Shown piece after piece: positions 6,444 to 45,263 of a stretch of DNA of 64,000 nt. Position 1 is the first letter of the stretch. Each line of letters starts with the position of its first letter. The notes beneath the pieces are model-generated. The model saw nothing but the letters and a program-made list of their open reading frames with translations. It was not told the DNA's origin and ran no database searches. This DNA is from Tremella fuciformis (taxonomy: Eukaryota > Basidiomycota > Tremellomycetes > Tremellales > Tremellaceae), in assembly GCA_032768795.1 (NCBI GenBank), contig CP136496.1:248001-312000 (forward strand), read 5' to 3'. A program made the position numbers and the translations under genes.

Positions 6444-9400
6444 ATGATGCATTTCGACCCCGTCAAGGATGCGACAGCAACGGTGAGTGCCAAGAGATAC
6501 TCGTGATCCGACACGTGTCGTCCACCCACGCCTTTCGTCCACCGTCAACATCGTTGTTCTCATAGCTACATCTCTCTCTATCTCCACCATGCATAACGCT
6601 ATGCAGCAGGCAGTCCGCGAGTGCACCAACAGCCCCGAGAAGAGCATACGGCAAGTTGCCCGCGAACACGGCGTCCCCCGCATGACGCTCAACGATCAAG
6701 TGATGCAGCGACACGTCTCTGACAACAAGGCCCCGAATCGGATCCTCTCAGTCCTGCAGGAGAACGTCCTGATCGATAAGATCAACGACTTTGCGTCCCG
6801 CGGCACCCTCCTGACACCTCGCCATGTCCGCAGCCTTGCAGAAAGGCTTGCGGATCGCCACGTCGACAAAGACTGGGTCGGGCGGTTTGTGCGGCGACAT
6901 TCCGACCGTCTCTGCAGCCGCTATCACACCTATCACGAGCTCTCACGACGGCAAGCGGACACCCCAGAGAGAAGACGCGCGTGGTACAACCTTGTGAGCA
7001 GCCCTGAGAGCATTTGAGAGCATTGGACGCCCCGCTGACGCTTGCAGGTCAAAGAGCTGTATGACTCTGACCTCTACACGCCCGCGGGGATCTTCAACAT
7101 GGATGAGACGTACTTCACGCTGTCAGACACGCGCAAAGTTCGTCGTATCGGCCCCTCAGACCTCCCCCGCAACGCCCAGACTGCTCCAGGCCGCTCTGGG
7201 ACTGGAGGGGAGCACATCACCGTCGTCGCGGCCGTGGGAATCGACGCCGCCTGCATCCCGCCGCTCGTGATCTACAAAGGCAAGTCTCTGCAGGAGCAGT
7301 GGTTCCCAGAGGCTGCGGATCGACGCCACGCGACAGTCACGGACTCGGGCTGGAGCAACAGCTACATCACCAAGCAGTGGGTGGAGAACTGCTTCGACCC
7401 GGCCACCCGCGATCGCGTTGCCCCGGGCCGCCGCCGTCTGCTCTTCCTCGATGGGGCCGACATCCACGACAAGGTTGACATTCTTGAGGCCTGCTGGGAC
7501 CGCAACATTGTCATCGTCATCATGCCAGCCTCTCTGACCGACCGCTTTCAGCCTCTTGACGTCGATCTCTTCAACCACGTCAAAGCTGCCTACTTTCGGC
7601 GGCTTGAGGACTATCGGGTTGCAACGACCAATGAGAGCGCGCCCAAGGGTCGCTTCTGGGGCTGGTTCCACGAGGCTTGGAAGGAGGCGGCAACATCCAG
7701 GCAGATCCGCAGCGCCTGGAGAAAGGCTGGTCTCTGGCCGCTCGATCCTGCGATCATTGGAGCTATCGAGCCCGAGCAACCCGTCACCCCACCGCCGCAA
7801 CCAGCCCAAATCCAGCTGCAGACACCGCAGACGATCCGCACCCTTCGGTCCTACACGCGGCAGCTGCGTCGCAGCGAGGTGGATCCCAAGGCGGTCGCAG
7901 AGAAGGCGCTCAAGGGACTTGAGCTCAAGATCGCCGAGCACAGTCTCACGCAACGCCAGCTGGCAGGCCTGCAAGAGACTCAAAGGCTGGACAAGGTGGC
8001 TAGGGGGAAGAGGAGGAAGGTCACGCACCCCCAGGGACAGCTGTATGACCTGGAGCATCGAGAGACTCACGCTCAGGAACTGGCGGACCGGAAGGCAAGG
8101 GAAGCAGAGGCTAGGGGAAGGAGAAGAGCTGCTGCTCAAGCTACAGGCAACAGGGGGGCTCAAGAACCGCACCAGGCATGCACACCGGGCCCTTCTACGG
8201 CTGTGTAAAGTCTCATGGCCTCAGCATGCATACATCATGAGTTCTGCTCATCGACGTCGACGGCGGCGGTGTCATGGACGGTGGACGAACCGCGTGGGTG
8301 GACGACACGTGTCGGATCACGAGTAACACATCGTTATAGAGACGGGATATTGACTGCCGAGCAAGCGAAAGCTTCCCAAGCGCCACCAAAGCGCTCAGAT
8401 CCCGCTCACGTCGAGTCCGCAGACAGCCACCGTTCCGCTCCAACGATCACACCGCTTACTGATTATCCCGCCGCCCAGTCGTACACGTACCAGTTCGGTC
8501 TGCAGCGCGGGCAATCTCTATCCCTCGACGCTCCCCAATACGGACCATGCGAGGCGGTGATAGCACCAGGGCTCGTTTGTGGCCTGCCATCAGAGCGCGA
8601 CTTTAGTGGTCTGACGGCTCTGGTCAGTCTCTGTGCGGAACACGTGCGTCTTCTTCGTCCGGACATGTCAAGTCGGCTAAAACGCCCAGACCCGCCAGAG
8701 TGCCCCATATGACCAACTCCTGGCTGGGCATGATCCGTATCGACGAGGACTGGGCCACAAGGAGCAGTTGCGCCATGCAAGAGACTCTCTCGCTACGGAC
8801 AAGTCGAGCATGGGGCATCGCCCGCGGACTGGGAAGAATCCTCGGACGGACTGCAAGGAGAAGCTCGACCAAGGAGACTCCGCAGGCAAATGGACCTTCG
8901 TCAACGAGACGTTCCCGGGCATAGCTCCAGACAACCCTGACGGGGGAAGGTCTGAGACAGCAGTAGTGAGTTCTGATCTATTGAGATAGGCGTAGATAGA
9001 CAGGTGAGCTGATGCGTCTACCAATAGTACGGCGGCCAAGATACTTCCCGCCCGACAGCAACTACTCAAGGAAGAGAATTTGTATGGCACGAATTCGTCT
9101 ACCCGACGGTGGCTTCAGCGGATGCCACCGTGTTCAAACACGTCACAGCCTCCCAGTTCAACCACGCGCAGAACACTACTGTGACTGAAAGGCGTGGCTT
9201 CGAAGCACCTTCCCCAGCTCCCCAACCCAGTCTTACCAATTTCGGGGCAGGGGAAGTGGCGGAGCTTCCCTATGCGCAATACAGCCCTCATCCTACTGAG
9301 ATAACAAGCTCGCGGCCGTCCAGCTGTGCATACACAACCCAGATGAGGAAGCGGTGCACACAGCCCAAAATGACCGGCAGTGAGTGGTGTCGTTTCCATG

Positions 9401-9677
9401 TGAGTCAGGACATTGGGAAACGTCGCTGGCTGACGGTTCCAAGACCGGCAGTCCCAACGTAGCTGAGCAGGTCATTCATGGGCGAGATCCCGACCGACTG
9501 TGGGACCTCTTGCCGCCGAGTACGCAAGCAACTCTGCAGGCGATCTATGAGCCCGAACGTCAGAGACGGTCTCGGATCGGTACGCGGGCCACAGACATTA
9601 CCGGAAGGACAGTGCCGGACGACTGCATCTCCACAAGGGACATTCGACAGAGCTATCAGTACCCATCGTGTCGATGA
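6444..9677 (+). CDS. F1, finger/QL array gene with a DNA transposon in intron 1
   Basis: Five phase-0 exons: 6444-6482, 8362-8643, 8699-8965, 9028-9399 and 9444-9677, giving 397 aa. The leader exon reads MMHFDPVKDATAT, closely matching the leaders of F4 and F11. Finger 1 (residues about 75-107) is C-x9-C-x17-C-x2-H and finger 2 (about 298-320) is C-x9-C-x10-C-x2-H; each ends an exon on its His codon. The exons after them carry the QL motif in degenerate form: PYDQLLAGHDPYRRG and EQVIHGRDPDRLWDL. Intron 1 is 1,879 nt because the transposon at 6500-8323 sits in it; without it the intron would be about 53 nt. Function unknown; metal binding by the Cys/His set is inferred. The first module could instead end at a stop at 8989 if intron 3 (8966-9027) is not spliced, making 9028-9677 a separate gene. 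Confidence 0.7.
6500..6546 (+). repeat. left terminal inverted repeat
   Basis: Begins CTCGTGATCCGACACGTGTC. It matches the reverse complement of 8277-8323 over 47 bp: 32 identical bases, two mismatches, then 13 identical bases. The outer part contains the palindrome CGACACGTGTCG. Confidence 0.95.
6589..8208 (+). CDS. pogo/Fot1-type DDE transposase
   Basis: Two exons, 6589-6993 and 7048-8208, joined over a 54-nt phase-0 intron, give 521 aa. The N-terminus has a psq-type helix-turn-helix (SIRQVAREHGVPRMTLND, about residues 23-40), then a CENP-B/Tc5-like DNA-binding region (about 55-115). The DDE catalytic core follows: NMDET (Asp154), LFLDGADIH (Asp270) and FQPLDVDLFN (Asp306). The 35 residues between the second and third Asp fit the DD35D spacing of fungal Fot1-like elements. 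The C-terminal 150 residues are charged and helical. The enzyme would bind the terminal repeats and cut and paste the element into TA sites. All three acidic residues are present, so it may be active. Confidence 0.93.
8277..8323 (-). repeat. right terminal inverted repeat
   Basis: Inverted copy of 6500-6546, ending at the TA target duplication 8324-8325. Confidence 0.95.
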
Positions 9678-10443: not shown

Positions 10444-11198
10444 ATGTCGCAACCATACCGTCCCATCATGCCTGCTCCGTCAAGTCAGGTGCGTTCGGAT
10501 GGGTTAGATATCAGATGTCCACTGACTGACCTTCCTTGCAGGACCCTACCGAGACGGGAGCCGGCTCGCAAGATTTCTCTCACACGATTGGCTCGTCTCA
10601 CAAACAGTTTCAGAAGCCGAAACCCCCAATGTGCTCATTCAGGACCAAGCATTCGCGGTGCAGAAGCGCTGCTAAATCAGGGAGTTATTGGTGTTCTCGT
10701 CATGTGAGCGAGACTACATAGACCGTGAACATGATCCAGCCTGACCACCCACAGGACAAGGATTTCAAGGGACTACAGCAAGCCGAAAACGGCAATGACG
10801 CGTCGGATTTGAAGAAGACTTTAGGGCAGAAAGAATGGGAAAGTTTCAAAAAGGAATATACGGCCAATCGGTCCTCTCAGCAGGTTACAGCACGGCTTTC
10901 AGCACAGCAAGCGTACGAGGCTGCCGCTGAGGCCAGACAACAAGCCCTCACAGATGCGTGGAATGCTTCGGTAGGCGGCAAGATTTATGCTCGACGTGCG
11001 TCGGAGCCGCAAAACCCGGCATCTGCCTGGGACCCGCAGTGGAGTAGCGACTCATATCCTGCCCAGCAGTGGTATCCTCCACAACAGTCGGACTATCCAT
11101 ACCAGCAGTCGTACTACCAAGCCCAGCAGTCGGGCTCTCAAGTCCAGCAGTCGGGTTATCAAGCCCAGCAGTCGGATTCTCAGAATCCGACGTCCTGA
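10444..11198 (+). CDS. F2, single-finger array gene with Gln-rich tail
   Basis: Exons 10444-10488, 10542-10703 and 10755-11198 (introns 53 and 51 nt, phase 0) give 216 aa. The 15-codon leader MSQPYRPIMPAPSSQ is followed by a finger at about residues 46-69, C-x8-C-x10-C-x2-H (starting CSFRTKHSRC), ending on the last codon of exon 2. Exon 3 is helical and Gln/Ala-rich (residues 70-150), with FKGLQQAENGNDAS where relatives have the QL motif. It ends in a low-complexity tail repeating Y/S-x-x-Q-Q-S. This is the compact finger type, resembling the C3H half-motif of KANSL2-like proteins. Function unknown; nucleic-acid or protein binding is inference only. Confidence 0.75.
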
Positions 11199-11880: not shown

Positions 11881-13022
11881 ATGTACCCTTACGAGACTGG
11901 CAAGAACGAGCCAGGACGGGTGGGTGGGGGTCTCAATTGCAAACGAAGTGCTGATGTCAGGATTACTCCAGTCCGCACGGTGACTGGGAGGAGGAGGGCC
12001 CCTCGGCGCCCACTCGCACACGCAGTCATGGACCGTCTCTCCCTGGAACCCGAACGCTGTTCTCCGACTATTTCCCCCCTTCGGAGCCAGAAGGCCCAGA
12101 GCAGTCGACTTCTCTCGGAGCTTACACCCATGGTCCCAGTCCTTCTACACACTCCGTAAACCTCCCTTCAATAGCGTCTCTTGTTCCGATAACTCCAACG
12201 GTCCGCATCTTACCACCAATCACACAGGCACCCTACGGTAGGTCCTTGGCTCCTCAAGTGCCGCCTGAACCCATCGGCCTAAGCGAGAACCAACCTCCAT
12301 ATCCTGGATTTGGAGGGCAAGTAGCGCCTCAACCGCCCAGTGAACAAGACAGTACACCATTCGGAGGCCTCTACCCACCACCGCAGACGCATCAGGTCCC
12401 AGAAGCGTCGAACTCATCTGCTTCTTACTCCCAAGGTCCCTATGCTTCCTTTGCTTCGCAAGGTCCCGTGGCAGGGGATCCAACACTATGCAACGCGAGT
12501 GCGCTTGACAGCTCCAGCTCCGACCCTGCCCAGACTAATCACATGGAGATCGTATGGGCAGAGCAGAGCGTTCCCATGGGTTCCCTCTTTCTGGGAAAAG
12601 GCAAGGAAAGAGGTGTCAATATCTATTTCCATCGAGCCGTGGCCGGTGTCAGACCTCTGTGAAGTTCGATGAAGAAGAGCAATGGTATTCGCCTTCGTCC
12701 AATGTCATTTTATGCATGACACACGTGAGTGCAATTCACCATCACGAGCCCAGCTAAGCCGCGTTAGCGCGAACATTCTGAGGCCTTCAGACAGGCGATC
12801 TGTAGGGCAGAGGAGAACCGCAATACAGACCGGCTGACTGCGGACGAGTTGGAAGCCATGCGCGTCCGGTACAATCTTCTGAGCGAAAAGGAGTCAAGCA
12901 GACAGGCTGCCAAGGCAAGAGCAGCCAATGCAGCCGCGGTGGCAAGAGCGCGGAGAGCAGACAAGTCGACGGTACTGAACCCAGGTCCTTTTCCCCTTAG
13001 TTCTCACCCACGGTCGGAATGA
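11881..13022 (+). pseudogene. F3, MYPY-type finger gene with a frameshift
   Basis: Exons 11881-11919 (leader MYPYETGKNEPGR), 11961-12724 and 12768-13022. The leader, the start of exon 2 (DYSS) and exon 3 match F8 and F10. Exon 2 is 764 nt, one short of a multiple of three: the Pro/Ser-rich part is in one frame until about 12600, while the finger C-x10-C-x21-C-x2-H (starting RCQYLFPSSRGRC) is in another, reached after the purine-rich stretch 12590-12615. Uncorrected, the frame stops at 12660-12662. Exon 3 encodes FRQAICRAEENRN and ESSRQAAKARA, aligned with F10. This is either a recent pseudogene or a one-base sequence error. The order of parts is otherwise intact. Confidence 0.75.
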
Positions 13023-14252: not shown

Positions 14253-14381
14253 TGTCATGATCCAGTATGTAGTTCAGATTAGGTACGCTTATAGGGGGAT
14301 CAAGCCGGTTCCTACCGAGCTTGATATTGAGCCTTTTACAGGACGTTGTGACTGCATGCCCCCTAATGTATGTTCGTGATA
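14253..14381 (+). repeat. left LTR of the TRIM element
   Basis: Starts TGTCATGATCC and ends GTTCGTGATA, a partial inverted match at the tips. It differs from the right copy only in GTTGTGACTG versus GTTATGACTG. Confidence 0.92.
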
Positions 14382-14673
14382 GTATATCAAGCTCAACGGG
14401 TCAGACGTTCGATTACGACTGAATGCTTCAGTCGTATTCAGAGGTACCTGGCTTGGAAACTCTTGGCTAAAGCCAAGCAAGGTTTCGGTTCAGAAGCATA
14501 CCATTATGTAGTTGTTAGTTACGAGAAAATACTAGTCTACCACAAGGCGTCCGAGCCATATATTCAGGGCCAAAGAGCCAATCATCCACGGCCAAAGAGC
14601 CAATCATTCAGGGCCAAAGAGCCAATTCAGGCCATAGAGCCGACGAGGACGTCGCCTATAACCGGGGGGCGAC

Positions 14674-14802
14674 TGTCATGATCCAGTATGTAGTTCAGAT
14701 TAGGTACGCTTATAGGGGGATCAAGCCGGTTCCTACCGAGCTTGATATTGAGCCTTTTACAGGACGTTATGACTGCATGCCCCCTAATGTATGTTCGTGA
14801 TA
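14674..14802 (+). repeat. right LTR of the TRIM element
   Basis: Same length as the left LTR with one substitution. Followed directly by the target duplication CAGTC. Confidence 0.92.
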
Positions 14803-15381
14803 CAGTCGGACATTCTCGCCGTCCCAATACAGGTATCAGTCCGGTCCGCACCAGGGGTAATCACTGCCGGACACGGCGCCCATGATCGGCGGGTGCCAGA
14901 CCATTACTGCACCACAGCTTCTCGTCTGCGGCAAGCCCTGCGATTTCAACGTGGGCGACCTCTCAACACTGGTTTATCTCTCCACCGAGCACGTGAGTCC
15001 TGTCTTTCTCTATGGGATAACTAACCCTGTCAGAGCCGCCAGCCGTGGCCATATGAGCAGCTTCTGTGCGGCGAAGACCCGTATCGACGCGGACGTGGCA
15101 TAGAGATTCGAGTGCTTCGTGCGAGAGACACGGTACGAGACGCACTCGCGGCGATGGCCAGCCACAAGTACACTAGGCCCCGGGGACGACACGACATCCT
15201 GGCTACTTCTCCCACAAAGACCACGACTGCGCCTCAGAAAAGCACTCTGCGTTTTATTGAGTGTCGACCTGAAGCAGGACCTGGACACAGGCCAAGAAGA
15301 ACCGCTCGAAGCTGGCGGCGCTTGCATGATAGAGTACGGAGTCGTGATGAGGATAATGCGCCGAGCACCCAGTACAAGTGA

Positions 15382-16862
15382 CGTTGCCGCCAAGTGCGTC
15401 CTGATAACAGGATGAAGACTGACCATCGCTCACTTCAAAAGTTCCTTCAGCGCAGCCGAGCGGGGCATAGCCGGGTACGACTCCGATCGGATGCAAGATG
15501 CTCGTGTAAAAGGGCTATGACTTGATGCGCAGATACCAAAGTCAGCTCCCAGACGTAGCGATGGCGACAACTAAAGCATCAGGCACTCCGAGGGGATCTG
15601 AGACCTTGCAAACTTGTCGGCGACCGATCATTTTAACCGCCCACAGGACAGACTGGAGTAGTTAGATAGCTGTATGAGCAATGGTCGTTATGGCTGCTTG
15701 ACCATGAGTAAGGATCATTCTCGCCTGGAGCTCCTATGGTTTGTGTAGACCCGGCGACGAAACAAGGGGTGGCTCCCTTGTGCTAGCTGTGTGTGCCGCA
15801 TGGCTACATACTTCTGGCCTCGACGCATCGCAGCTTTGCCTTGATGTTTCCTTGACCTCAAATACCTTTCAACGTTTCTAGAGCTTGGACAGGCGGAGGC
15901 TGGAGGATCGCTGCGACTGTCGTAGGTGTCGGTGCACGCTAGGCTTCTTGGGAGTTTGCTAGTAGTAGCAGCTGCAGGACTGGGGAGCACAGGCCTATCC
16001 TTCACATTGATTCGCATTATATCTTGGTCGCGAAGTCGAACTGACTGTCAACAAGCATCGGTCTGCCGGCAAACATCGGACGAAAAGGTGCTGGACCCAT
16101 CCTGACTCTTAATTTCCGTCAAGTGCAAAGTGTAGACGGTGGCCCGATCTAGCGCAAGCCCACCTCGAATCATTCAAGTGCGCCGCAATAGCACAGAGGA
16201 GTCCGGCAGCCGTTGTTCCGGAAAGGGCAAAGAAGACCACATAGCCCCACTCATGCACCAGAAAAGCATGGAAATCATTTTTTGCCGGATGGACACACTC
16301 GCCACTGAGTGAAAGCGCTGGGATGCAGTGTCTAATCGATGGCCGAGAGTACTTGGATCTTGCAGTGTTCACCTACGTCAATGAATCAATAAGCGCCTTC
16401 CCACACGCCATGCTGGGATGGTCACGGCTGCATCATCAAGGGGTCTCGCCTGGATCATGGACCTCTAGCAGACGGAGATGAGGTGTGCCCCAACACAGCC
16501 GAACATCTCCGCCCAAAGATACGTAAATACTTTGGCGAGAAGAATGGATGAAGACAGACATCCACGCTGATTTGCAAAGGGTATATCATATCGGCCAGAA
16601 TCGGATATGACCTTGGAGGGAGGTCGAGCGCATCGAGCGACAATTTGCTAATTTTCTTTGACATCTTGTGAACGTCACAGCCTTTGAAAGCATGCTCATG
16701 CATCGGGAGCGGACAATCTTGGCTATAAAAGCAGCCCAGCTTATGGACCACGGCCCCATCACTCAATAACTTTCCCTACTCTTCATCGTCCAATCGATAA
16801 ACGCGTCAATTGCCTTCCAGATACCCCGCGGCACTCCACCAGCGTTCGCAGTAAGTACAGAA
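15382..16862. other. F4-F5 intergenic region
   Basis: 1,481 bp. Short minus-strand open frames exist (for example 16109-16372, with one hydrophobic stretch), but nothing supports them as genes. The last 140 bp hold the F5 promoter. Confidence 0.4.
16724..16731 (+). promoter_or_regulatory. TATA box of F5
   Basis: TATAAAAG, 139 bp before the F5 start codon. F12 has the same box at the same distance. Confidence 0.65.
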
Positions 16863-17698
16863 ATGGACGCTCAGCAGGATCCTCGGACGACCGAGGTATG
16901 TGCATCGAAAGAAACCTGATGGCAGAAATGAGAAGTGCAGCTAAAATACAGGAACATCAAGACACCGGGTCACAGTACACCCTTCCACCGCTGATCAGTG
17001 GGGACGCCCCGGAAAACACAGCCGACCAGGCCTATCAAATGGGGATATATGCTGGGCAACAAGATCAACCACATGCTGCGGGATCATCCGCACCTGTTGC
17101 CTCTCGGAGCCGTAACCCTCCTCCGCACTCATCGAGGGCGTACCGTGCAGTTTGGGCCCTTCGGAAGAAAATGATGAAAGACAAAAAGACAAACGCCATT
17201 CCGCTCCCTACCCCCGAAAATTTTGACAGCGTCTTCCAAGCTTTTGACCCTTCCAGCAACCTTTCTGACCTGGATCGGGTTCAGCAAGACGACCGCACAC
17301 CGTTCGACTTCCATACTGCTGTATCGTCGGCATGGCAGAGAGCCAATCTTATCTACGTTCCGAGTCAGAGCTGCTCATTCCTAACCCAAATTGAAGGGAC
17401 GTACAGACAGTGCAGGAATCCGAGCACTTCCCATCAGGATGATGTGTGGCCCTCACACGTCATTAAATGGTGCAACGATCATGTAAGGCTAGCGACGAAA
17501 TGAGACCCAGCTGACAATATGCAGCATAAGTGGCCCGAAGCGATATCCCAAGTCCTTGAGGGTCGGGACTTCCACAACGTATGGCAAGTGTTGACGAACG
17601 GCGAGAAACAGTCTGTGATTACCTGGGATCACGAGCAGCGAGTCGCTGCGGCCGCGCAGCTGGAGCAGCTTCAATCATGGGTGGATGAGTGGCATTGA
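16863..17698 (+). CDS. F5, single-finger array gene
   Basis: Exons 16863-16895, 16952-17482 and 17525-17698 give 245 aa, all junctions phase 0, with a second intron of only 42 nt. The leader is MDAQQDPRTTE. Exon 2 is mostly polar; residues about 70-140 contain a basic, helical stretch (ALRKKMMKDKKTN) and a segment ending FDPSSNLSDLDRVQQDD. The finger is C-x12-C-x19-C-x2-H, starting CSFLTQIEGTYRQC and ending WCNDH on the last codon of the exon. Exon 3 carries the QL-equivalent PEAISQVLEGRDFHNVWQVL, then a helical end rich in Ala/Gln. A TATA box lies 139 bp upstream. Function unknown. Confidence 0.8.
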
Positions 17699-19622: not shown

Positions 19623-20255
19623 ATGAGCCACTCGGTCTCGTCCGACAAGCGTGTAGAGTCGGAGAATGTCGCTGACACACAAAGTTATCCGCCTCGCTCA
19701 CCACAAGAGGTCAACCAAATTCTCCAAGACCTGTCTTAGCCTCGGTATCCAGCCGTGTGGGAACAGCGTCACCCGAAGCCGGATACCACTCAGCACACCG
19801 CGACTGGCCCCGCTCAGCACCTGGCCGGTGTGGCGTCTTCAAGTGCCCAAGCACCTCCGCTGTCTCCAACAATTGCTCCTGGTACCAATCCATCGACATA
19901 CCTTCACGAACGTGATTCGCCATCAGAGCCGCATTGTACTTTTCTCGATGCTAATGGAAAGCGATGCGAAACCAAGAGCTGGACGGATAGCCCTTGGTGT
20001 ATGCGCCACGTGGGTCTAACATATAGAGGGATACATCTGATCAATCAGGGCGTCTACTCAGAAGCGTTGTTACAGGTGTTAAACGGGGAAGACGCTGTCG
20101 GAGCACTGCAGACAATGAGCCTGGCCGAGCGTCGCAAGTTGTATTTGCGCCATGCTCGCTCATTCGTTTCCGAAGATGACACAAGTGAGCTGCTTAATCA
20201 ACCTGCAGGGGAAGATAGGGGGCCGGACCCAGAACCGCAGTGGCCTGACCTATAG
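19623..20255 (+). CDS. F6, single-finger array gene
   Basis: Exon 1 starts at ATG 19623 (MSHSVSSDKRVESEN), exon 2 is 19740-20009 and exon 3 20049-20255. The end of exon 1 is uncertain: splicing at 19667 gives a 72-nt intron and a 173-aa protein. Splicing at 19709 would leave a 30-nt intron, which seems too short. The finger C-x9-C-x10-C-x2-H (CTFLDANGKRC ... WCMRH) ends exon 2 on its His codon. After a 39-nt intron, exon 3 carries the QL-equivalent YSEALLQVLNGEDAVGAL, then a Leu/Arg helix and an acidic Pro-rich end. Function unknown. Confidence 0.7.
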
Positions 20256-23454: not shown

Positions 23455-24071
23455 GTCGAGTCAATGGTCGCGGGTCCAGGTCCAGTTCTGCCACGTCCTG
23501 ACCCGCAGCCGGAGTGAGCTGTGCAATTTCTCATGTTCAAAGGACTGCCAAAGTGCCTCTTGCCGTTGCGATATATACTTCTCCATGCAGATCACCTTGT
23601 ACTCGCTTAAATGTATGAGCACATCAGACAGTGCTAGAGAGAGACTCGCCGCACCATAGGATGCATTCCAACTGCAGTGGTCGAAATCAGTCGCAGTCCG
23701 CAAACTCGGGCCGAGAAAGCAGCGGAGTCGAGACATTGGACACGAGTGTGATATGGTGAAGTATCTGACAGAGAGTACATGGTGTCGGAAGGCCAAGACT
23801 CCGCGCTTATTTGCAAAACAGGCGAATCAGGCGAGGATATACTTGGAAAAACATTTGAAGGGCAGGCGCTCGCACTGTCCGACATGTCTCACCGGGTCAA
23901 GGGAGACCCCGAAGCACCGTGGGGGGATGAGACGGCTCTTATAGTATAAGACTTAGCTTCCTCTTGACTCTGTCTCTAGGACAGAGAAAGAGCGTTGACT
24001 ACGGTCCACCCCTGCCCAGGCTCTGAGAATAACAAAGAAGTCGGTGCGCCACCTGTAGGACGCTAGACCAA
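23455..24071. other. F8-F9 intergenic region
   Basis: 617 bp without a supportable gene. A TATAAG sequence at 23945-23950 lies 127 bp before the F9 ATG and may be its TATA box. Confidence 0.45.
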
Positions 24072-31466: not shown

Positions 31467-32545
31467 ATGTCTGAAGAGACTCGTCCTTCCAGTATTGCGG
31501 CTGAGAAGGTGCGTCCTCGCAGCCCCATGGCCTGTGCCTTTGCGACCTACCACTAAATTCGATTAGGGGACGACCACCGGTGCTCATGCCAGTCATGGCC
31601 CACCGCAGGCGTTGCTCACGGAACCGCGACCGGCAGCGGACAAGCTACAATCCCTCCCTCACACTTACGATATGTGGCCGGAATTCTTCAGCGCTTCGAG
31701 GGACTCGAGAGATGATTTTGCCGCTTCTGGCGCTCAGATTTCCGCCCCTCCTGGATCTTACCCTCACCACTGTCGGTCTCCGAGCCAGAGTCTGTCTGTA
31801 GGCCGACACGTTTACACATCGGCTCAACTGTCACAAATCTCCCGATATGACCACTTTTTGACCCAAAAAGCCTATAGGCTTGCCTCGCAATGCGGCCGGG
31901 GCAAGAGGACCTCAGCCACCCAGTCGGTAGCTAGTTTGCGACCGATCGCACCAAAGACCCAGCAGGTACCGCCGGTCACCGTAGAATGGAGACCTACTCG
32001 CCGCCGGCGTCAATGTACCTGTGTCAAATCGGGCCCACGTGCTTGCTGGGTACATGTGAGTCGTATCCGTGCTCAAACCTACTATATCTCATTTGCACAG
32101 AATCCCGGAGCCAAATTCTCGCACGGAAAGACTCGGTGCTCGTATCGACTGGAGAACAGCATTTGTGGCAACTTCGCTCTTCCGAACGAGGATCGCTGCC
32201 ACGTACATGTGAGCCAAATCTGCGCAGAAATTTTCTGAGCCTGACTGACCGAAATAGATTAATTCGAAGGTCATAGACTGGGATACATGCTGTACGTATC
32301 GCAGCGGCAAGCGTTGTACCGAACCCACTTCGGGAGATTCGGACCGTTGTTTTCGTCATGCGGGCACCAGACGGAGGAGTCGCCCCAAAGACTGTTGCGC
32401 AGATGGTTGGGGTGGTCAGAAAAGTGGCAGCTGTCAGCCGCACTCCACGAATGGGCCCGAGTCCGCGGACACTGGCGCGGTGTGGAAGGACTCGGCTGAA
32501 GGCATAGAGAATACAATTATTGTACGGCCGTCGACGTATCTGTAG
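31467..32545 (+). CDS. F13, three-finger array gene with DTIIV-type tail
   Basis: Exons 31467-31508 (leader MSEETRPSSIAAEK), 31567-32055, 32101-32208 and 32258-32545, phase 0, give 308 aa. Three fingers appear in order: CTCVKSGPRACWVH (degenerate, ends exon 2), CSYRLENSIC ... RCHVH (C-x8-C-x10-C-x2-H, ends exon 3) and CTYRSGKRC ... RCFRH (C-x7-C-x10-C-x2-H) in exon 4. In exon 4 the frame runs on past the His because the next bases are GCGGGC rather than a GT donor. The C-terminus is Gly/Ser/Lys-rich, then acidic, ending EGIENTIIVRPSTYL. This resembles the tails of F14 and F15, which links the small finger genes to the large ones. Function unknown. Confidence 0.8.
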
Positions 32546-33775: not shown

Positions 33776-35489
33776 ATGCGGAGGGCATACAATCCGGCTT
33801 GGTACGGCTATCCTGACGATGAAGAGGCCACGGTCGAATTGCCCAATGACCCGCGTCTCTTGGCGTCCAATCCCACCCCGTTCGGCGGCTGCAACGACCC
33901 ATACACTGTCGCGCTATGCGACACCCATTTGGAAGGCGGCGCTGGAAATGACAATCCTTCTCAGTGCGTCCCCAGCCCGCAATTAGTCAGCACGCAGGTG
34001 ACGGGGACCCACCTATCCTACTGCCCAAACACGGTACAACCTCTCGGGCCCACTCTGCCTCTGGGGATTCGACCCGAATGGCCCCTTGGGGCTGCGCCGA
34101 GTGTGTCGCAGTCATCGCCGATGGTAGGGCTACTGCAGCCAGCAGCTGAGACTGCAACAAGTGAAGGCTCAATCGCCACGAAGCCCCCTTCCGCGCCAGG
34201 AAAGGGACCTGAGGAATCGGGCGACGGACCGCCGTGCGAGGCAAAGTACGACCCTGCCTTTGTGCATGGCGGTAGGGGTGAGCTATGGGACAAGGATGAC
34301 CGCTGCCTCAGAATGAGTTCTGCAAACAGATATCTCCCATCAAGTCTGAATTGGTGCCGCATCCATGTGAGTTGAGCAGAGCAGTCGCCATTACAAAACT
34401 GACTTGCGCTCTAAGAATCGCCGTGCATTTGTTTTCAAGCAGCTTATGAAGGGTGAAGATCCCTATAAGCGTTGGCCCATGCTGAGCACTGCAGAGCGAG
34501 TGACAGTAATGCAGAGGTGTATCACTGTACTGTGGGCAGATGAGAGAAGATATCTGTCACGTACTGGAAAAACAAGCACTGATGACACTCTCAAGAACGC
34601 CAGGGCGGACCTTAAAGCTCTAAACCTCACTGCTAAGGAGAAACCATATCCTGACCTCACCAAACTCTCATGGATTCCTCTATCTTGGACCGCTGAGGCT
34701 GATCACCCACGCCCCCGCAAACCTAAAGCAGATTCTCAAGGGGAATTGGGCGACATACCGCCGTGCGAAGCAAAGTATGACCCCACCTCGGTGCATGGCA
34801 GTAGAGGTAAGATATGGGGGGAGGACAACCGCTGCCTCCAAATGAGTCTTGCAAACAGATTTCTCCCATCAAGTCTGAATTGGTGCCGCACCCATGTGAG
34901 TTGAGTCCTCATGCAGAGCAGACACCGTTACAAAACTGACTTGCGCTCTAAGAAAAGCCGTGCATTTGTTTTCAAGCAGCTTATGAAGGGTGAAGATCCC
35001 TATAAGCGTTGGCGCATGCTGAGCACTGCAGAGCGAGTGACAGTAATGCAGAGGTGTATCACTGTACTGTGGGCAGATGAGAGAAGACGTCTGTCACGTG
35101 CTGGAAAAACAAGCACTGATGACACTCTTGAGCAGGCCAGGGAGGACCTTGAAGCTCTGAACCTTGCTGCAGAGGAGAAACCATATCCCAACCTCACCAA
35201 ACTCTCATGGGTTCCTCCATCTTGGACCGCTGAGGTTTACCGTCCACACCTCCGCGGACGTGCAGCAGATTCTCAAGAAACCAGTCAGAGTGTCACTGAC
35301 AACTCTGACTCTGATTTAGACGATGATGTTGCAAACGATACGGAGGACCTGTCGGACCCCGACGATGATGTTGAGACCGGAGATGAGAGCGATTCATCAG
35401 TGGAAGAGGCCGAAGTGATCCGCGACACGATCATTGTCTGTACGACAGACCCAGAAGAGGAACCTTCGGATGCGCATGACCGCCCCTGA
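33776..35489 (+). CDS. F14, finger+QL gene with a recently duplicated module
   Basis: Exons 33776-34366, 34416-34895 and 34953-35489, phase 0, give 535 aa. There is no short leader exon; the start MRRAYNPAWYGY opens a long polar exon. The extended finger C-x22-C-x16-C-x2-H (CEAKYDPAFV ... LNWCRIH) ends exon 1 and its twin ends exon 2. Both following exons start with the QL domain FKQLMKGEDPYKRW, then STAERVTVMQRC, a Thr-rich linker, PYP[DN]LTKLSW and SW. The two QL+finger units and their introns are almost identical in DNA, so the duplication is recent. The C-terminus is strongly acidic and ends VIRDTIIVCTTDPEEE plus ten residues. Function unknown. Confidence 0.85.
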
Positions 35490-36873: not shown

Positions 36874-39562
36874 ATGTGGCCTGCCTCAAATTCGTCTCAA
36901 CACTACTATGCTGACGATGCGGAGGCTGCAGCCGAGCGGCCCATTGAGGCCATGACGATCAGTCCGCGTCACCTTGCATTGAATGCTCCCCAATTCGACG
37001 ACGCAAATTCCCCATACGCCCACAGCCCGTGGAGCTTTGCCCCTCTCTCCGTCGTTGACACTCAATACCTCGGATTCCCCTCTGTTGAGCGAGCCTCACA
37101 GTGGCCGCGATCAGCTGAAAGTGCCAACGTACAGGGGATGTGGACCCACGACCCGTTCGCCCCGACTCTCAACTCACAGTCGCTGCAGCCGATGTGGACG
37201 CCCATGTTAGACATGCCCGTCATGCCCGTGGCAGAACAGCCCGCTCTCGCGCCTACGGCCTTTCCCTCAGGCCTCTCGCCCGAATGGCGGGCTTCCCCGG
37301 AAGGGGCAACGGTTGAAACGGGATCAAGCGAAGCGGCAAACCTCACGAAGGCGCCGCACGCACCGCGCAGGGCGAGCAGAACACACGTGATCGCTCAGTG
37401 TGAGGTGAAGGTCGAACCCAGCTTCATGTCGGACAGTGGGCGTGTGGGATGGACCGACCGCCTTTGCCGCAGAATGAGTACTGTGTCCAGGTCTCTCCCG
37501 TCAAGTCTTCATTGGTGCCAAAAGCATGTGAGTTGTCCCTCCGCGCAGGAAACATGATTCCCCGACTGAGCGTTTCCAGAAGGCCAGTTTGATCACATTC
37601 TTGCAGCTTATGACGGGCAATGACCCCCGCCAGCGGTGGACCCATCTGAGCACCGAAGAGCGGGTGCAGGTGCTGAAGAGGTGTATCACCGTACTAAGCC
37701 TGTACAGAGGCCAAAGGGCAAGACGCTCCGGTAAGACGAACAGCGATGCTACCCTCGAGAGTGCGAGGGCAGACAACGCCGCTCTCACTCTCGCTGCGCT
37801 AGAGATGCCATACCCGGATCTTGCAAAACTATCTTGGACGCCTTCATCTTGGACAGCTGCGAGCCGCCACCGCTCCCATAGGGGTCCAGCAAAGGACAAG
37901 GGCGCCTCCCAATCGAACGCCAGTCGTCTGCTTACTGACAGCCCAGCCCTGTCTGCCATTGACGAAGATGTTGACCCTGTCGCTCCTTCAGGGGTACCGC
38001 CACCCGTGCAACGTACCCGGTTTCCATCGGGGGCTGAAGAGGATCCCTGCGAAGGCTCGAGTGCGTCGGCTGCGCCGCTGCCAGGGACGGAGAGAGATTG
38101 GCCGTGGACAGACAGGTGCGAGGTGATGCATGACCCCTTCTTTGTGAGGAATCATGAGAGCCAGTGCTGGACCGACGGACGTTGCAACAGAAAGAGTACA
38201 GACTTCCAGGCTCTTCCGTCCCTGGTGCATTGGTGCAAAAATCATGTGGGTCCATTTCCCATACTATACTGAGGAGGCATCATTCGGAAACTGACTGCGG
38301 CTCCCAGAAAGTCTGCACCTTTCCCTTCTTCCAACTCATCACCGGACATGATGCTTTCAGGAGGTGGGGCGGCCTGAACACTGAAGAGCGGGTGTTGGTT
38401 CTGGAGAAGTGTAGCATCGCGCTGCATCAGACCCAGAAGCGGCAGCTAAGATCTCAAGGCAAGACGGACACTAATGGCACGCTTGATGATACGCTTGATC
38501 GAGCGCTGGCGGACCGCAACGCCCTCACCCGGGCTGCTACGGAGGAGCCTTACCCTGATCTCACCAGACTGCCTTGGATTCCCAGTTGTTCGATTACCAG
38601 ACAACGACAGCCTCGCAGAGGGGGAGGTCTAGCAGGTGCTGAGGTATACAGCCAGTGTGTTAATGGCAACCCGGCCCTGTCCAACTTTGGCACAAACTAT
38701 GATGCTGTCGCCCAGTTGAACGTCTCGCCACCACTGCAGACTGCTCCACTCGCAGCAGGGGCCAAATTGGCCGCTAGCAAGGGCTCAAGTGGCACAAGGA
38801 CGTCACTCCGTGCCCGAGGGAGGTATCGCCAAATCACAGTCCCAGACCAGTGCGAGGTGACCTATGACTCCAGGTTTGTGAGGGCCTCAAAAGGTCACAA
38901 CTGGTCTGACAATCGTTGCAACAGAAAGAGTGAATTCTATGAAGCTCTCCCATCCTTGGTAAATTGGTGCAAAGACCATGTGAGTCCAATGCCCACTTTG
39001 AGGAGGCGTGTGTCAAACTGACTGGGACCATTAGAAAACCTGTAGCTTTCCCTACTTCCAACTCATGACAGGGTATGATGCGCATAAGCGGTGGAATGGT
39101 CTGAGTACTGAAGAGCGAGTAACAGTGCTGGAGAGGTGTATAATTGCACTCCAGAAGAACAGGACTATACGACTGAGAAAGAGAGGTAAGAGAAACACTG
39201 ATGACACGCTTGAGCAGGCTCTGGCAGACCGCAACACCCTGACCCAGGTTGCTATGGAGCAGCCCTACCCTGACCTCACAAAGCTTGATTGGATTCCTGT
39301 ATCTTGGAAAAACGTAAAACGCTCCCGCGAACGCCCAGCAGCCCTTGAAGGGGCCGGCCAGTCGGTACGCGCCATTTATCGAGTCACTGACAATCGGTCC
39401 CTGTCAGCGTCTGGCTCTGGCAATGACAATGCTGCTCGTGGCACGGCAGAGAATCCGTCGTCGGATCCCGACGATCGAGCTGAAACCGTAGGTGGTAGCT
39501 GTTCGTTGGTAGAGGAAGAGGCGGAAGTGATCCACGATACGATCATTGTCTGTACGACTTAG
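36874..39562 (+). CDS. F15, largest array gene, three finger+QL modules
   Basis: Exons 36874-37527, 37580-38245, 38308-38979 and 39035-39562, phase 0, give 839 aa. Exon 1 (residues 1-218) is Pro/Ala/Ser-rich and ends in finger 1 (C-x21-C-x16-C-x2-H, CEVKVEPSFM ... WCQKH). Exons 2 and 3 each start with a QL domain (FLQLMTGNDPRQRW; FFQLITGHDAFRRW) and end with a finger (CEVMHDPFFV ... WCKNH; CEVTYDSRFV ... WCKDH). Exon 4 has the third QL domain (YFQLMTGYDAHKRW), then an acidic tail ending AEVIHDTIIVCTT. Each QL domain continues with TEERV.VL..C, a basic linker, a TL..A.AD..AL helix and PYPDL.KL.W. Modules are more diverged than in F14. Function unknown. Confidence 0.88.
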
Positions 39563-40430: not shown

Positions 40431-42380
40431 ATGTCGTCTTCCGCGCACCCTCACCACAGCAACCATAACGAGGATGAGGAGGCAATGCCTGCATGGCCGA
40501 TCGAGTACGAGACCACCAATGAGCGATTTGACGTCGCCTGGGAGGCCGGCCAACCTGCCAACTCCAATTCCGAGTTCGTCGACGACTCATGGGGTGTCCC
40601 CTTCAGCTACGACCAGCCCACCGACTTCGACACTAATGCGCAGCATGAAGATGAGTATGCTGACATGTATATGCAGTGGCCTCCGATGCCTGAAAATGAC
40701 GACGTGCACGGCATCCGGGCTGATGGCCTGTCGCTGCAGCCCTGGGCCTCTTTGCCACTGGATCCCATGCTCGAGGCAAATCAGCACGATCTGGTGCTCG
40801 CCGTCAGCCCGTCGCCGCAGCCCTGGGCCCGTATGGCAATGGATCCCATGCTCGGGGCAGATCAGCCCGACCAGGTGCGTGCCGTCAGCCCACCAGGCAT
40901 CTTGCCGTCATCGCGAACTGAGTTGTCTCCATCAACGGCGGAAGCGACCGCTGGCGAAGATTCGCACGTCACGCAGGAACCGCCCCCGCGTCGTTCAAGT
41001 CGCCTCAGGAAAACAGCAACGTCTCAGTCGCACGTTACGCAGCCATCGGCCCCCCGTCATTCGAGTCGCCTCAGAGAAACAGCAACATCCCAGTCGCACT
41101 TTACGCTGGCATCGCCCCCGCGTCGTTCGAGTCGCCCAAGGAAAGCAGCAACATCACGGTGCGAGGTAATTAGAGATTCGCGATTCGTCAGAGATGGTAC
41201 CGGACAGTGGTCTGACGACCGGTGCACAGGACAGGCCATTGCGCATGAATGCCTTCCGAAGAGTCTGAAGTGGTGCAACAGCCACGTGAGCCATTTGGCG
41301 ACACATTCGTAGATGAGCAGAGCTGATTGGCGCCTTCTAGACCCAAGTTGGCTATCCGTACTTTCACCTCATGACGGGGGAAGACCCGCGAAAACTGTGG
41401 ACCACACTGACCGCGGATGAGAAGGTGGATGTCGTGATCAGCCTTGTCGACTTGGTGGGCCGGCGCCGCAGCGAGGAAGCCAGTTCTATTCTACGCCGCG
41501 CCCAGGCCAATCGACCCGCGATCACCCGCGTGGTTGAGCAGTCCGATTATCCCGACCTATCGCGCCTCCCCTGGGTCCCTCAAAATTGGGGTTTCAAGAT
41601 TGGGGACCGAGAAATTAAGGCGAACCCGGGCAATGCTCGCTTGTCCATCAGAGTGCTTGGATACGATTCCATGGACAGCAATGATCCCTGGGGTTCCGAC
41701 CACGATGATGAGGCGGTCGACTCGTCCGCACCCCCGCCCCCAATTGTGCGAAAGCAGGCTGGCCGCAAAAAGAAGGAAGTCAAAGACCGATGTGAGGTGA
41801 AGGAAGACCCCCTATACGTGAAGCGTGGTCGCGGACATTGGATCAATGGCCAGTGCGCTCGAGACGCTGTGGATCATAGGCGCCTTCCGAGAAGTCTGAG
41901 GTGGTGCCAGGCTCATGTGAGTCAATCGGTCCTGCGGTCCTGAGACGGTCAGAGCTGACTAGCGTCTGCCAGACCCAGGCTCGCTATCCATTCAAGCAAC
42001 TCATGACGGGCGAAGATCCCCATCACAAGTGGCCGCAGCTGACCACGGACGAGCGGGTGAAGGTGTTCAAGGAGCTCATCGATTTAAGCCTGGACTCGAC
42101 CAAGGATCCTACCCTAGAGCGCGTCCGATCGGAGTCCGGCGAGTACTCCGGCGAACTCACCCGCGCAGCTGAGCAGGAATACCCCGACCTCTCCATCCAC
42201 TCCTGGCTCCCGGCGTGCTGGAGAAGCGTAAAGTCGAGTCGGCCCAGAGGGAAGTTGACTGCTGGCCGCTCGTCGAGGAAGACCAGACGGCTCGATTCTG
42301 ATGACACCCCGTCGTCTGACCATGACGGGGCGGTGAACAATGATGAAGATTCTCTGTCCGACTTTGATGATGCGACTTAG
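40431..42380 (+). CDS. F16, two finger+QL modules, stop codon before the conserved tail
   Basis: Exons 40431-41285, 41341-41916 and 41973-42380, phase 0, give 612 aa. Exon 1 is acidic at first, then has two copies of a PWA...DPML unit and three copies of a basic unit centred on RRSSRLRKTATSQS. It ends in a finger, C-x20-C-x16-C-x2-H (CEVIRDSRFV ... WCNSH). Exon 2 opens with QL (YFHLMTGEDPRKLW) and ends with a second finger (CEVKEDPLYV ... WCQAH). Exon 3 has the QL motif FKQLMTGEDPHHKW and PDLSIHSW. TAG at 42378-42380 ends the frame, but 27 further sense codons follow in frame to a TAG ending at 42464, encoding AEIIQDTIVVQ as in F14/F15. So the tail is lost by a nonsense mutation or reached by readthrough. 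Function unknown. Confidence 0.85.
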
Positions 42381-42464
42381 GGCATCGAGGGATCCGCCGG
42401 GTCGACGGACTCGGCTGAGATCATACAAGACACGATCGTCGTGCAAAAGCGCACCGACAGGTAG
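42381..42464 (+). other. in-frame continuation of F16 after its stop codon
   Basis: 28 codons, including the second TAG, directly after the F16 stop and in the same frame. They encode the conserved tail AEIIQDTIVVQKRTDR. The tail is intact in sequence but normally untranslated unless the first TAG is read through. Confidence 0.7.
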
Positions 42465-43214: not shown

Positions 43215-44365
43215 ATGTCCGCCTCGGATCTTTCTCGAGACAAGTCTGTCGACGATATCAGATCGCCCATCAGCGACTCTACGACTGATGTTACGCTTCG
43301 CGTGCCCGCAACCGCATCCCAGGTCGCCGGCACCACCACAGCAGACACCACCAGCTCTTGGCCGTAACCCCCAGTCCGCATCCCTGACAACCAGCAGACC
43401 ACCTTCCCTCGTCTCAATGAGCCTACTCAGTGGGCTCCTGTGTCTCCTAGTGCTGGGGCGTATGGGCATTGGGCTCCCGCTCCCTCTGTTCCACACCACA
43501 GCACACAGATGCTACCGCCTTTAAGGAGCGCCGTTCCGGTTGGAATACTGCCCGCTTGGCCGCCCACCGCACTGCCACCCCTCTCGCTGGCACATCAGAT
43601 TGCCCCTCAGCCGCTCGCAACCCAACCGGTGAGAAGCCGGGAAGATGCAGGCCGCTCGAAGGCACGCGACCGCGGCAGCGTGTCCGGGCGAAGGCGCAAG
43701 AGCGCACTGTGCGAGGTCAAGTACGACCCCTACTTTGTGAAGAGTCTGGTGAGTACGTATTGGACGGGACCAGACCGCCATTGCAGCAGAAGAAGTGCTA
43801 CATACGACAACCTCCCGGAAAGTCTGAACTGGTGCGGCACCCACGTGAGTCTTTCCCCACCGTTCAATCCACGCTGACGTGCGCCTGCCAGCATGGAAAC
43901 GGCATGGCGTTCTTCCAGCTCATAACGGGACGAGACCCCTACAAGCGATGGGCCGGCCTGACTACCGAAGAGCGCGTAACTGTGCTCCGCAAGTGTATCA
44001 CTGTTGTTTTCCGGGACAAAGAGAGGTATTGGCGCCGCCAACCTAACCAGCCCCATGATCTCGCCTTTGAACAGGAACAAGCCCTGGGAGACACAGCCGC
44101 TCTCACGCACGCAGCGGAGGAGCGACCTTACCCGGACCTCTCGAAGCTTTCATGGGTCCCTGCGTCGTGGATTGCTCGAAGTCTCATGTTCTCGCAATCA
44201 GCGGCTGCGGAGACCTCTGACGGTCTCTTACAGCCTGCCGGCCCCAGCCGGCGGGTGCTTGACGCTGCGCTGCCGACCGGTGTTGATCCTCGTGATAACG
44301 ACAGCGACGCCCTCACCGTCGGTTTTGGGGATTCCCACGAACCCCACTCGAACGTTGAGGCTTAG
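43215..44365 (+). CDS. F17, finger+QL gene, 5' part uncertain
   Basis: The finger exon ends at 43844 and contains CEVKYDPYFV ... LNWCGTH (C-x23-C-x16-C-x2-H). The last exon is 43892-44365, with QL domain FFQLITGRDPYKRWAGL, TEERVTVLRKC and PYPDLSKLSW. The finger frame is open upstream only to a TAA near 43364. A start at ATG 43215 (MSASDLSRDKSVDD) needs an intron spanning that stop, with a weak GTCGCC donor near 43322 and an acceptor near 43390. Alternatively the 5' end is decayed. The frame ends SNVEA at 44365 without the conserved tail, which appears out of frame at 44458-44526. The gene is probably a functional or recently damaged member. Confidence 0.6.
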
Positions 44366-45263
44366 GTAGAGGCATGCAACCTACTTGCTCGTTGTGCATA
44401 TCATAACAACGAGGGGGCCGGTAGGCCCCCAACCACAACAAGCGCACGGACGAGACCAATATCGAGATTGACTCGGACTCGGACATTGCCGTGGTTGAAG
44501 ACAGTATCGTAGCCCAGCCGGCGTAGGCGAGCAGTCACCAAAGCTTTTCTTACCAACCCATGTTGACGCTGCATCGCCCATGAATTGCTGTGCCACACTG
44601 CCACTGCCACTGCCACTTTCGTAGGGTCGCCTGCGGATAAAAGACGGCGACGTACGTGATGCGCCCGGTGCCTTAGTGTGTATCTAAATTCAGGGTCCCA
44701 AAGGAGGGGTCGCCGTGTCTGCCGTCTGGTCTTGGCAACGTGCAAGTCATGTCACTCTTCCGCTGTACGATATCGCAGCGACGCCTCTTCATGGTCTACG
44801 CCACATCGCTGTCCGACGCCGAAGTGAGAGCGGCAGTGTTCGACTGACGAAGACGAAGAGAAGAGTCGTGTGTGGGCGGGAGGGTGTCTTTGTTCGGGAC
44901 GGTAGACGACGACTAGTGGATTGAAATCAGGGTGACGAGGCACCCGACGCCGTGTCTCCCCTCTTTCTTCTTGTCCTCTCTTTGTTGGCTATGCAGTGCA
45001 GCAGTGCAGCAGCAATCAAGACACGAGGCAATGACTGACCGAGTGGCCGGGGAGATGCATCAGATCAGAAGACAGATCAGGGCTCTCCTCCCCTTCTTGC
45101 TTTAGCAATAGCAGAGGTGACTGCTCCGTCGGCCGGGAAGAAGGGCAGAGCAGAGGCAGACTAAGAGTGATCACCGTCCCGCAGACAGACACAGACAGCG
45201 GCAGCCCTCGAATTATTGTCATCATTGCCTCTCTGTCAGTCACTCCCTCACTCGACCAGCACC
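44366..45263. other. F17 downstream region with an out-of-frame tail remnant
   Basis: Marks the right edge of the array. 44458-44526 encodes IEIDSDSDIAVVEDSIVAQP and then one Ala before a stop, resembling the F14-F16 tails but shifted from the F17 frame. A 7-bp hairpin (44413-44430) lies just before it. The rest holds the promoter of the next gene. Confidence 0.5.

What the first reader, a model, noticed from the sequence alone, without database searches (positions are those of the whole stretch)
6444..44526. A 38-kb same-strand array of 17 members of an apparently undescribed finger/QL gene family
All members read on the plus strand and most share a short leader exon, a disordered exon ending in C-x(7-23)-C-x(9-21)-C-x2-H and a following exon, often with F/Y-x-Q-L-x2-G-x-D-P. 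They range from 173 to 839 aa and include intact, frameshifted and transposon-hit copies. Such size and turnover suggest diversifying selection (self/non-self recognition, mating-type-linked regulation, or defence against mobile elements), but none of these roles is shown. I do not know a named family with this combination.
Basis: partly seen in the sequence, partly recalled or inferred. Interest (0 to 1): 0.92.

Follow-up and report, generated by a model that had tools for sequence, protein, structure and literature searches.

The report
Orphan zinc-finger gene array beside mating locus
A jelly mushroom carries, right next to one of its two mating-type loci, a run of about seventeen related genes for zinc-binding-type proteins that matched no other protein in the searches made here and that have grown by copying a small finger-plus-helix building block within and between genes.

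Summary
On the + strand, 6.44-44.53 kb, I accept 24 C..C..C-x2-H finger exons (one has lost a ligand) in about 17 genes. In 21 of the 23 intact fingers a GT follows the His codon directly (phase-0 donor); in 14 of 24 modules a 'QL' exon follows. Neither the reverse strand, the flanks nor resampled sequence shows this.

The genome matches Tremella fuciformis Tr01 haplotype A. The array starts 1.4 kb beyond the HD1/HD2 mating-type pair, directly after RPL22. Five family probes find nothing above chance elsewhere in the 28 Mb genome. Profiles of two branches find nothing at E<=10 in a protein set that holds many other Tremellales.

Three genes carry two or three finger-QL modules, largely copied inside the gene. 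QL exons look constrained; none of 57 finite pairwise dN/dS values exceeds 1, so diversifying selection is unsupported. At least two mobile elements sit in the array.

Best reading: a clade-restricted, tandemly amplified family of intracellular, probably nuclear zinc-module regulators. DNA or chromatin binding, and SUMO binding through a shared C-terminal motif, are inferred, not shown. Mating or genome-defence roles remain open.

The parts
747..2453 (-). HD1 (TALE homeodomain, SXI1-like) mating-type gene, flank; ends approximate
   Evidence: Homeobox_KN PF05920 E=5e-11 on the ORF 1521-2126; exon pieces
2625..5018 (+). HD2 (SXI2-like) mating-type gene, divergent from HD1, flank; ends approximate
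   Evidence: FQNRRARARK homeodomain-type stretch read in the ORF from 3516; no Pfam call for it, so named by motif (recalled) and position
5372..5934 (-). RPL22 (eL22), flank
   Evidence: PF01776 E=4.5e-14; 72-84% identical to listed Tremellales RPL22
6444..6482 (+). F1 leader exon (MMHFDPVKDATAT), followed by GTGAGT
   Evidence: read
6498..8325 (+). pogo/Tigger-like DDE_1 DNA transposon in intron 1 of F1, 49-bp terminal inverted repeats counted with the TA on each side
   Evidence: copies elsewhere
8548..8643 (+). F1 finger; intron 8644-8689; QL exon from 8690 (YDQLLAGHDP)
9325..9399 (+). F2 short finger; GTGAGT next; exon with (AEQ)VIHGRDPDRLW, acceptor not settled (9444, 9468 or 9471)
   Evidence: weak zf-C3Hc3H match E=0.013, under cut-off
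10632..10703 (+). F3 short finger; GTGAGC next; following exon ambiguous
11881..13019 (+). F4: leader 11881-11919, long second exon, finger 12614-12724, exon 12768-13019; finger in another frame than the second exon (damaged)
14253..14802 (+). TRIM-like element with 130-bp direct terminal repeats, flanked by CAGTC on both sides, upstream of the relic module
14894..15195 (+). relic module related to F1 and F8: finger with third Cys lost, GTGAGT, then YEQLLCGEDPYRR
   Evidence: one TAA inside the match
16688..17695 (+). F5: finger 17372-17482, intron 17483-17524, exon with AISQVLEGRDF; 5' end not settled
19740..20252 (+). F6: finger 19935-20009, intron 20010-20048, exon with ALLQVLNGEDA; 5' end not settled
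21134..21890 (+). F8: LPSIRT segment, finger 21619-21714, then YKQLLRGVDPYQR (acceptor not canonical, short)
22480..23451 (+). F9: leader 22480-22518, LPGIRT exon, finger 23156-23260, helix-type exon from 23305, early stop
24067..24793 (+). F10: two fingers (24571-24642, 24722-24793), each followed by a GT donor, no QL exon found
25609..26731 (+). F11: leader 25609-25647, LPSIRT exon, finger 26348-26440, intron 26441-26488, last exon; open in all exons
30528..30750 (+). double finger (30528-30596, 30676-30750) of the gene at about 30.0-30.8 kb
32137..32359 (+). double finger (32137-32208, 32291-32359) of the gene at about 31.6-32.4 kb
33776..35486 (+). F13: two finger-QL modules (fingers 34235-34366 and 34764-34895; QL exons from 34416 and 34953 with AAG acceptors, or later with CAG), C-terminal EVIRDTIIVCTT
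36874..39559 (+). F14: three finger-QL modules (fingers 37399-37527, 38117-38245, 38851-38979; QL exons from 37580, 38308, 39035), C-terminal EVIHDTIIVCTT
40431..42464 (+). F16: two finger-QL modules (fingers 41160-41285, 41791-41916; QL exons from 41341, 41973), last intron 42333-42380, 624 aa, C-terminal EIIQDTIVVQKR
43215..44526 (+). F17: finger 43710-43844, intron 43845-43891, QL exon from 43892, last exon 44425-44526 with DSDSDIAVVEDSIV; start, 5' splicing and last donor not settled
50266..51700 (-). SKN1/KRE6 gene (part), right flank
   Evidence: PF03935 E=1.1e-59 and 2.2e-60 on two exons

Best explanation
A clade-restricted ('orphan') family of intracellular zinc-module proteins. It sits at one place only, between RPL22 beside the HD mating-type locus and the SKN1 side, and grew by tandem gene duplication and by duplication of a finger+helix module inside genes. 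Each full module is a C..C..C-x2-H finger, expected to hold one zinc, encoded at an exon end and continued, after a phase-0 intron placed directly after the last ligand, by a helical QL domain. Proteins have a long polar, probably disordered N-terminal part and one to three modules. The F13-F17 branch ends in a short acidic/hydrophobic motif. The likely mechanism, which is inferred, is that of multivalent nuclear regulators: modules bind DNA, chromatin or a partner protein, module number tunes valency, and the tail may bind SUMO. Shown by sequence: the family, the module, the intron position, in-gene duplication, constraint on the QL exon. Not shown: expression, zinc binding, nuclear location, any ligand.
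For: Fingers and intron position beyond chance: 20 of 32 array + hits followed by GTR, 0 of 11 elsewhere. In 8 of 8 long fingers E, W, L, P, W are invariant besides C, C, C, H (the four ligands are invariant there and in 15 of 15 short fingers, because fingers were picked by them). 13 invariant columns in 8 of 8 QL exons.

QL fold predicted as helical, mean pLDDT 77.7, pTM 0.70. Four internal exons of F13, F14 and F16 read QL, linker and next finger in one open frame (4 of 4). In the unrooted tree F13a/b (99/99) and F14b/c (96/96) pair, and F16a/b part from the other six with 94/95, just under the starred level; F14a does not join F14b/c.

Matches at E<=10 in the own genome: F17 module 16 of 16, F11 4 of 4 and F1 4 of 4 in the array; F2 module 2 of 3 and a double finger 5 of 6, the two outside at E=0.17 and 0.21, the first without the Cys pattern.

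No homologue at E<=10, while the same database lists Tremellales RPL22. 25 of 27 finite QL dN/dS at 0.11-0.54. No hydrophobic stretch in six modelled N-termini (max KD 0.47 over 12 residues). C-terminal [VI]-[IV]-x-D-[TS]-I-[IV]-[VA] in 4 of 4 genes of the F13-F17 branch; its reading as SUMO-interacting is recalled, not tested. LP[SG]IRT in F8, F9, F11.
Against: No expression, binding or localisation data. No Pfam family recognises the finger above its cut-off. The only call above a cut-off, WHIM1, hits 1 of 8 QL exons over 23 residues. The recent duplicate F13a/b evolves near neutrally (finger+QL dN/dS 0.74, QL alone 0.96) and several members are damaged, so part of the array may be dead. The finger could be purely structural or bind protein or RNA instead of DNA. 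Common descent of all four branches rests on ligand order, intron position and gene order. F3, F5, F6 were not used as genome probes.
Confidence: 0.5

Rival explanations
1. A KRAB-zinc-finger-like defence cluster: modular DNA readers that silence mobile elements, kept changing by an arms race.
For: Tandem cluster, variable module number inside proteins, no homologue found, SUMO-like tails; a genome with many mobile elements (PMC10696834 reports about 19% repeats).
Against: No pairwise dN/dS above 1 in fingers or QL; the array itself carries two elements; no DNA-contact code visible; no expression data.
Confidence: 0.15
2. A mating- or self-recognition-linked regulator set inherited with the HD locus.
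For: First gene starts 1.4 kb from the HD2 end, with only RPL22 seen between; family matches above chance only at this place.
Against: PMC10696834 finds only 1-2 kb of the HD locus polymorphic between the two nuclei, within and between SXI1 and SXI2. Linkage alone needs no function.
Confidence: 0.12
3. A decaying, mostly functionless array of an orphan family.
For: F4, F9 and the 14.9-kb module are damaged; F13a/b ratio 0.74-0.96; unknown expression.
Against: F11, F13, F14, F16 open across the modelled exons with phase-0 introns (F13 with AAG acceptors); 25 of 27 finite QL pairs at 0.11-0.54.
Confidence: 0.15
4. Proteins that act on the fungal partner Annulohypoxylon (effector-like).
For: T. 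fuciformis lives with Annulohypoxylon stygium (PMC13288022, section 17 part 1 of 2 read); fast-turning clade-restricted clusters are typical of effectors (recalled).
Against: No hydrophobic N-terminus in six modelled members; proteins up to 839 aa with polar, charged stretches.
Confidence: 0.05

Closest known systems
zf-C3Hc3H (PF13891; KANSL2/INO80D-type, recalled)
   Same: Ligand order C..C..C-x2-H; the F2 finger matches at E=0.013
   Different: Below cut-off and only in F2; half of the model; the long-finger branch has wider spacings and a QL helix domain
WHIM1 (PF15612, ISWI-partner motif)
   Same: 23 residues of one QL exon (F16 second module) pass the cut-off, 22.1 against 19.1 bits
   Different: 1 of 8 QL exons and half of the model; its seven relatives do not match
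Plant growth-regulating factors (WRC finger plus QLQ domain; recalled)
   Same: A short C..C..C-x2-H finger paired with a Q/L-containing helix
   Different: Reverse order, different QL sequence; neither WRC nor QLQ was called by Pfam
KRAB-zinc-finger gene clusters (PMC11952569, search listing and start of abstract only)
   Same: Clustered, fast-evolving modular finger genes
   Different: Other finger type, no KRAB, one cluster of about 17, no positive selection detected here
HD mating-type locus of Tremellales (PMC12510652 and PMC2873909 passages; PMC13085929 section 20 and passages)
   Same: HD1/HD2 divergent pair linked to RPL22; SKN1 in the same region in Naematelia sinensis
   Different: No finger-gene array is mentioned in the passages read; figures and supplements were not seen

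Membership tests
zf-C3Hc3H PF13891 | Pfam profile above gathering score | tested here: not met
   best 16.3-16.8 bits against 27; not listed for the 15 short fingers at E<=1
zf-C3Hc3H PF13891 | C..C..C-x2-H ligand order | tested here: met
   15 of 15 short and 8 of 8 long fingers, which were chosen by this order
WHIM1 PF15612 | Pfam profile above gathering score across the family | tested here: inconclusive
   1 of 8 QL exons, 22.1 against 19.1 bits, positions 18-40 of 46
WHIM1 PF15612 | fold match to a WHIM/DDT structure | tested here: inconclusive
C2H2 zinc finger PF00096 | profile match | tested here: not met
   23 places at E<=0.001 in the genome, none of them in the window
GRF (WRC/QLQ) | WRC and QLQ Pfam domains | tested here: not met
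   not called in 8 QL exons, 15 short and 8 long fingers at E<=1; HMMER filters apply
KRAB-ZFP-like defence cluster | tandem array at one place | tested here: met
   31 of 33 matches of five probes in the array, the other two at chance level
KRAB-ZFP-like defence cluster | restricted to a clade | tested here: inconclusive
   no homologue at E<=10 but the search needs shared 5-residue words
KRAB-ZFP-like defence cluster | positive selection at the reading residues | tested here: inconclusive
   0 of 57 finite pairwise ratios above 1; site tests not run
KRAB-ZFP-like defence cluster | binding to mobile elements | not testable with these tools
   needs ChIP or similar
HD mating-type locus member | polymorphic between mating types | not tested
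   second haplotype not held; paper reports only 1-2 kb polymorphic
secreted effector | N-terminal signal peptide | tested here: not met
   hydropathy of six modelled N-termini of about 17 genes, max 0.47 over 12 residues; no SignalP

The most novel reading that the evidence does not exclude
A finger-helix module that exists only in a Tremella clade has been built into a modular reader family beside the HD mating-type locus. Its module number and copy number differ between strains and act in the dikaryon, for instance in nucleus-to-nucleus recognition or silencing of mobile elements.
Probability: 0.15. Interest if true: 0.8.

Novelty: new variant of a known kind. Interest (0 to 1): 0.52.

Why it matters
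It is a compact, fully assembled case of an apparently new protein module multiplied within one locus of a sequenced edible mushroom. Gene duplication, in-gene module duplication, decay and transposon insertion can all be seen at once. Its place beside the HD locus makes strain comparisons simple, since phased genomes of both nuclei and monospore isolates of this species are published (PMC10696834). They would show whether array content follows mating type, strain or mobile-element load.

Tried and rejected
Homology: profile of four F13-F17 module proteins, 0 hits at E<=10 among the 7,996 candidates sharing most words; profile of F9+F11, 0 hits among 6,108 candidates. The search needs shared 5-residue words, so a fast-diverging family could be missed. 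The RPL22 control (404 hits, 120 listed) shows that Tremellales proteins are held, not that divergent ones would be found. T. fuciformis is not among the 120 listed names (best match Dioszegia, 82%).

Progenitor elsewhere: the only non-array matches, C1 at E=0.17 and C4 at E=0.21, are at chance level; the first ORF shows no C-x2-H, the second was not looked at. Single weak Pfam hits taken as chance: YlxR (0.0009, one long finger; 0.0057), TRM13 CCCH (0.0031) and DUF5763 (0.042), one short finger each. Rfam: none at gathering score in the window.

Papers: searches listed no paper that describes the array by title or abstract start (20 of 32, 7 of 7, 7 of 7, 10 of 1,704, 10 of 14 and 6 of 6 papers shown). 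Only open-licence PMC papers are held and no supplement or figure was seen. One search (WHIM) gave two listings, not read. Read: PMC10696834 sections 5 and 7 and passages; PMC13288022 section 17 part 1 of 2 and passages; PMC13085929 section 20 and passages; passages of PMC12510652, PMC6730849 and PMC2873909.
Full report
What was checked. The window is G000:C7:248001-312000 of a 28.14-Mb assembly in 11 contigs. Contig lengths C1 8,650,000, C2 3,633,012, C7 2,331,147, C8 1,584,971 and C11 426,448 agree with the chromosome table of Tremella fuciformis Tr01 haplotype A (8.65, 3.63, 2.33, 1.58 and 0.43 Mb; total 28.15 Mb). That paper also writes a Chr08 stretch that ends at 1,584,971 and places the HD locus on Chr07. 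The organism is therefore inferred with high confidence; no sequence of that record was compared.

The neighbourhood. The left flank holds a TALE homeodomain gene (Homeobox_KN, E=5e-11) and a divergent gene with an HD2-type stretch, then RPL22 (PF01776). The right flank holds a dihydrolipoamide acyltransferase (E2-type) gene and SKN1/KRE6. In Naematelia sinensis the HD pair is flanked by RPL22, and SKN1 is among the genes drawn in the same region (figure legend; passage). So the array lies in the RPL22-SKN1 interval next to the HD mating-type locus. The HD2 ORF ends at 5,018 and the first family exon starts at 6,444.

The family. Six-frame scans and inspection left 23 intact C..C..C-x2-H fingers, all on the + strand. 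Directly after the His codon comes GT in 21 of 23, GTGAGT or a close variant in most. The wider count gives 20 GTR-followed hits of 32 in the array (9 of the 32 are not family fingers), 0 of 5 on its reverse strand, 0 of 6 in the flanks, and at most 1 in each of 50 resamples. Introns are 39-84 nt, depending on the acceptor chosen. The two non-GT cases are second fingers of double-finger genes.

Branches. (i) F13, F14, F16, F17: long fingers with invariant C, E, W, C, L, P, W, C, H (8 of 8) and a QL exon of about 90 residues with 13 invariant columns. (ii) F4, F9, F11: CQY[LI]-type finger and an AF-x-Q-x-I-x-RAE exon, with leader M-x-P-Y-x5-EPGR. (iii) F1, F8 and the 14.9-kb relic: Y-x-QLL-x-G-x-DPY. 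(iv) short single or double fingers F2, F3, F5, F6, F10 and the genes at 30 and 32 kb. That all four share one ancestor rests on ligand order, the common intron position and gene order; sequence identity between branches is low.

Growth. Internal exons of F13, F14 and F16 read QL, linker and next finger in one open frame (4 of 4), so modules are joined in one protein. The unrooted tree of 8 modules pairs F13a/b (99/99) and F14b/c (96/96) and parts F16a/b from the rest (94/95, just below the starred level); F14a is not resolved with F14b/c. Module duplication inside genes therefore happened at least twice and probably three times. F13's two modules are 85-92% alike in DNA.

Restriction. Searching the whole genome with five family pieces gave 33 matches at E<=10; 31 lie in the array and the two others have E=0.17 and 0.21. 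Only best candidates are scored there, and F3, F5 and F6 were not used as probes. Two profile searches of about 5.8 billion proteins gave nothing at E<=10, while the RPL22 control listed Dioszegia, Naematelia, Papiliotrema, Kwoniella, Cryptococcus and T. mesenterica. The family is thus absent, or too diverged to share words, in annotated proteins of those genera.

Selection. Of 63 pairwise comparisons, 57 have finite dN/dS, all below 1. QL pairs: 25 of 27 finite values at 0.11-0.54, the others 13a/13b 0.96 and 16a/16b 0.67. Finger pairs: 23 finite values at 0.16-0.81. Second exons of F11/F9/F4: 0.52-0.92. Many dS values exceed 1. This supports coding function of the QL domain and gives no support for diversifying selection.

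Structure. The QL exon of F17, folded with 7 relatives, is a helical domain (helices 5-12, 25-48, 57-66, 68-75, 91-94; mean pLDDT 77.7, pTM 0.70) without a credible PDB match. One QL exon scores above the WHIM1 cut-off; because 7 of 8 do not, I treat it as a lead only. Six modelled N-termini show no signal-like stretch.

C-termini. F13, F14, F16 and F17 end in or near EVIRDTIIVCTT, EVIHDTIIVCTT, EIIQDTIVVQKR and DIAVVEDSIVAQPA, next to acidic runs in F13, F14 and F17. In F16 this needs one more phase-0 intron, 42333-42380, which the sequence offers; in F17 four donors are possible. The likeness to SUMO-interacting motifs is recalled knowledge and untested.

Turnover. A pogo/Tigger-like element (DDE_1 E=8.8e-24) lies in intron 1 of F1, flanked by TA. 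A TRIM-like element with 130-bp direct repeats lies before the 14.9-kb relic. F4 changes frame before its finger, and F9 ends early.

Verdict. Observation confirmed; interpretation partly supported. The most likely nature is an orphan, tandemly amplified family of intracellular zinc-module proteins, probably nuclear regulators. The mating, defence and recognition roles are open, with position the only evidence for the first.

Noticed in passing
6498-8325: pogo/Tigger-like DNA transposon with 49-bp terminal inverted repeats and TA on both sides; 12 other listed copies cover at least 1,700 of the 1,861 query bases at 78-91%.
   Followed up: yes
14253-14802: TRIM-like element (label recalled): 130-bp direct terminal repeats, four other full copies at 98-99% and single repeats elsewhere, CAGTC on both sides.
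   Followed up: yes
18360-18531: About 170-bp repeat with 40 listed matches elsewhere at 72-86%, some only half length (40 of 91 candidates scored); no Rfam match at gathering score.
   Followed up: partly
40962-41160: Three 66-bp tandem repeats in F16 that encode a basic run (..PPRRSSRLRKTATSQ..) before the first finger.
   Followed up: no
53725-56917: Two long + strand ORFs; the first has a BED-finger match just under cut-off (20.2 against 20.6 bits).
   Followed up: no
45600-47465: Serine-rich protein with one membrane-spanning-like stretch followed by a Q-rich tail, resembling a cell-wall sensor by eye (Mucin15 match under cut-off).
   Followed up: no
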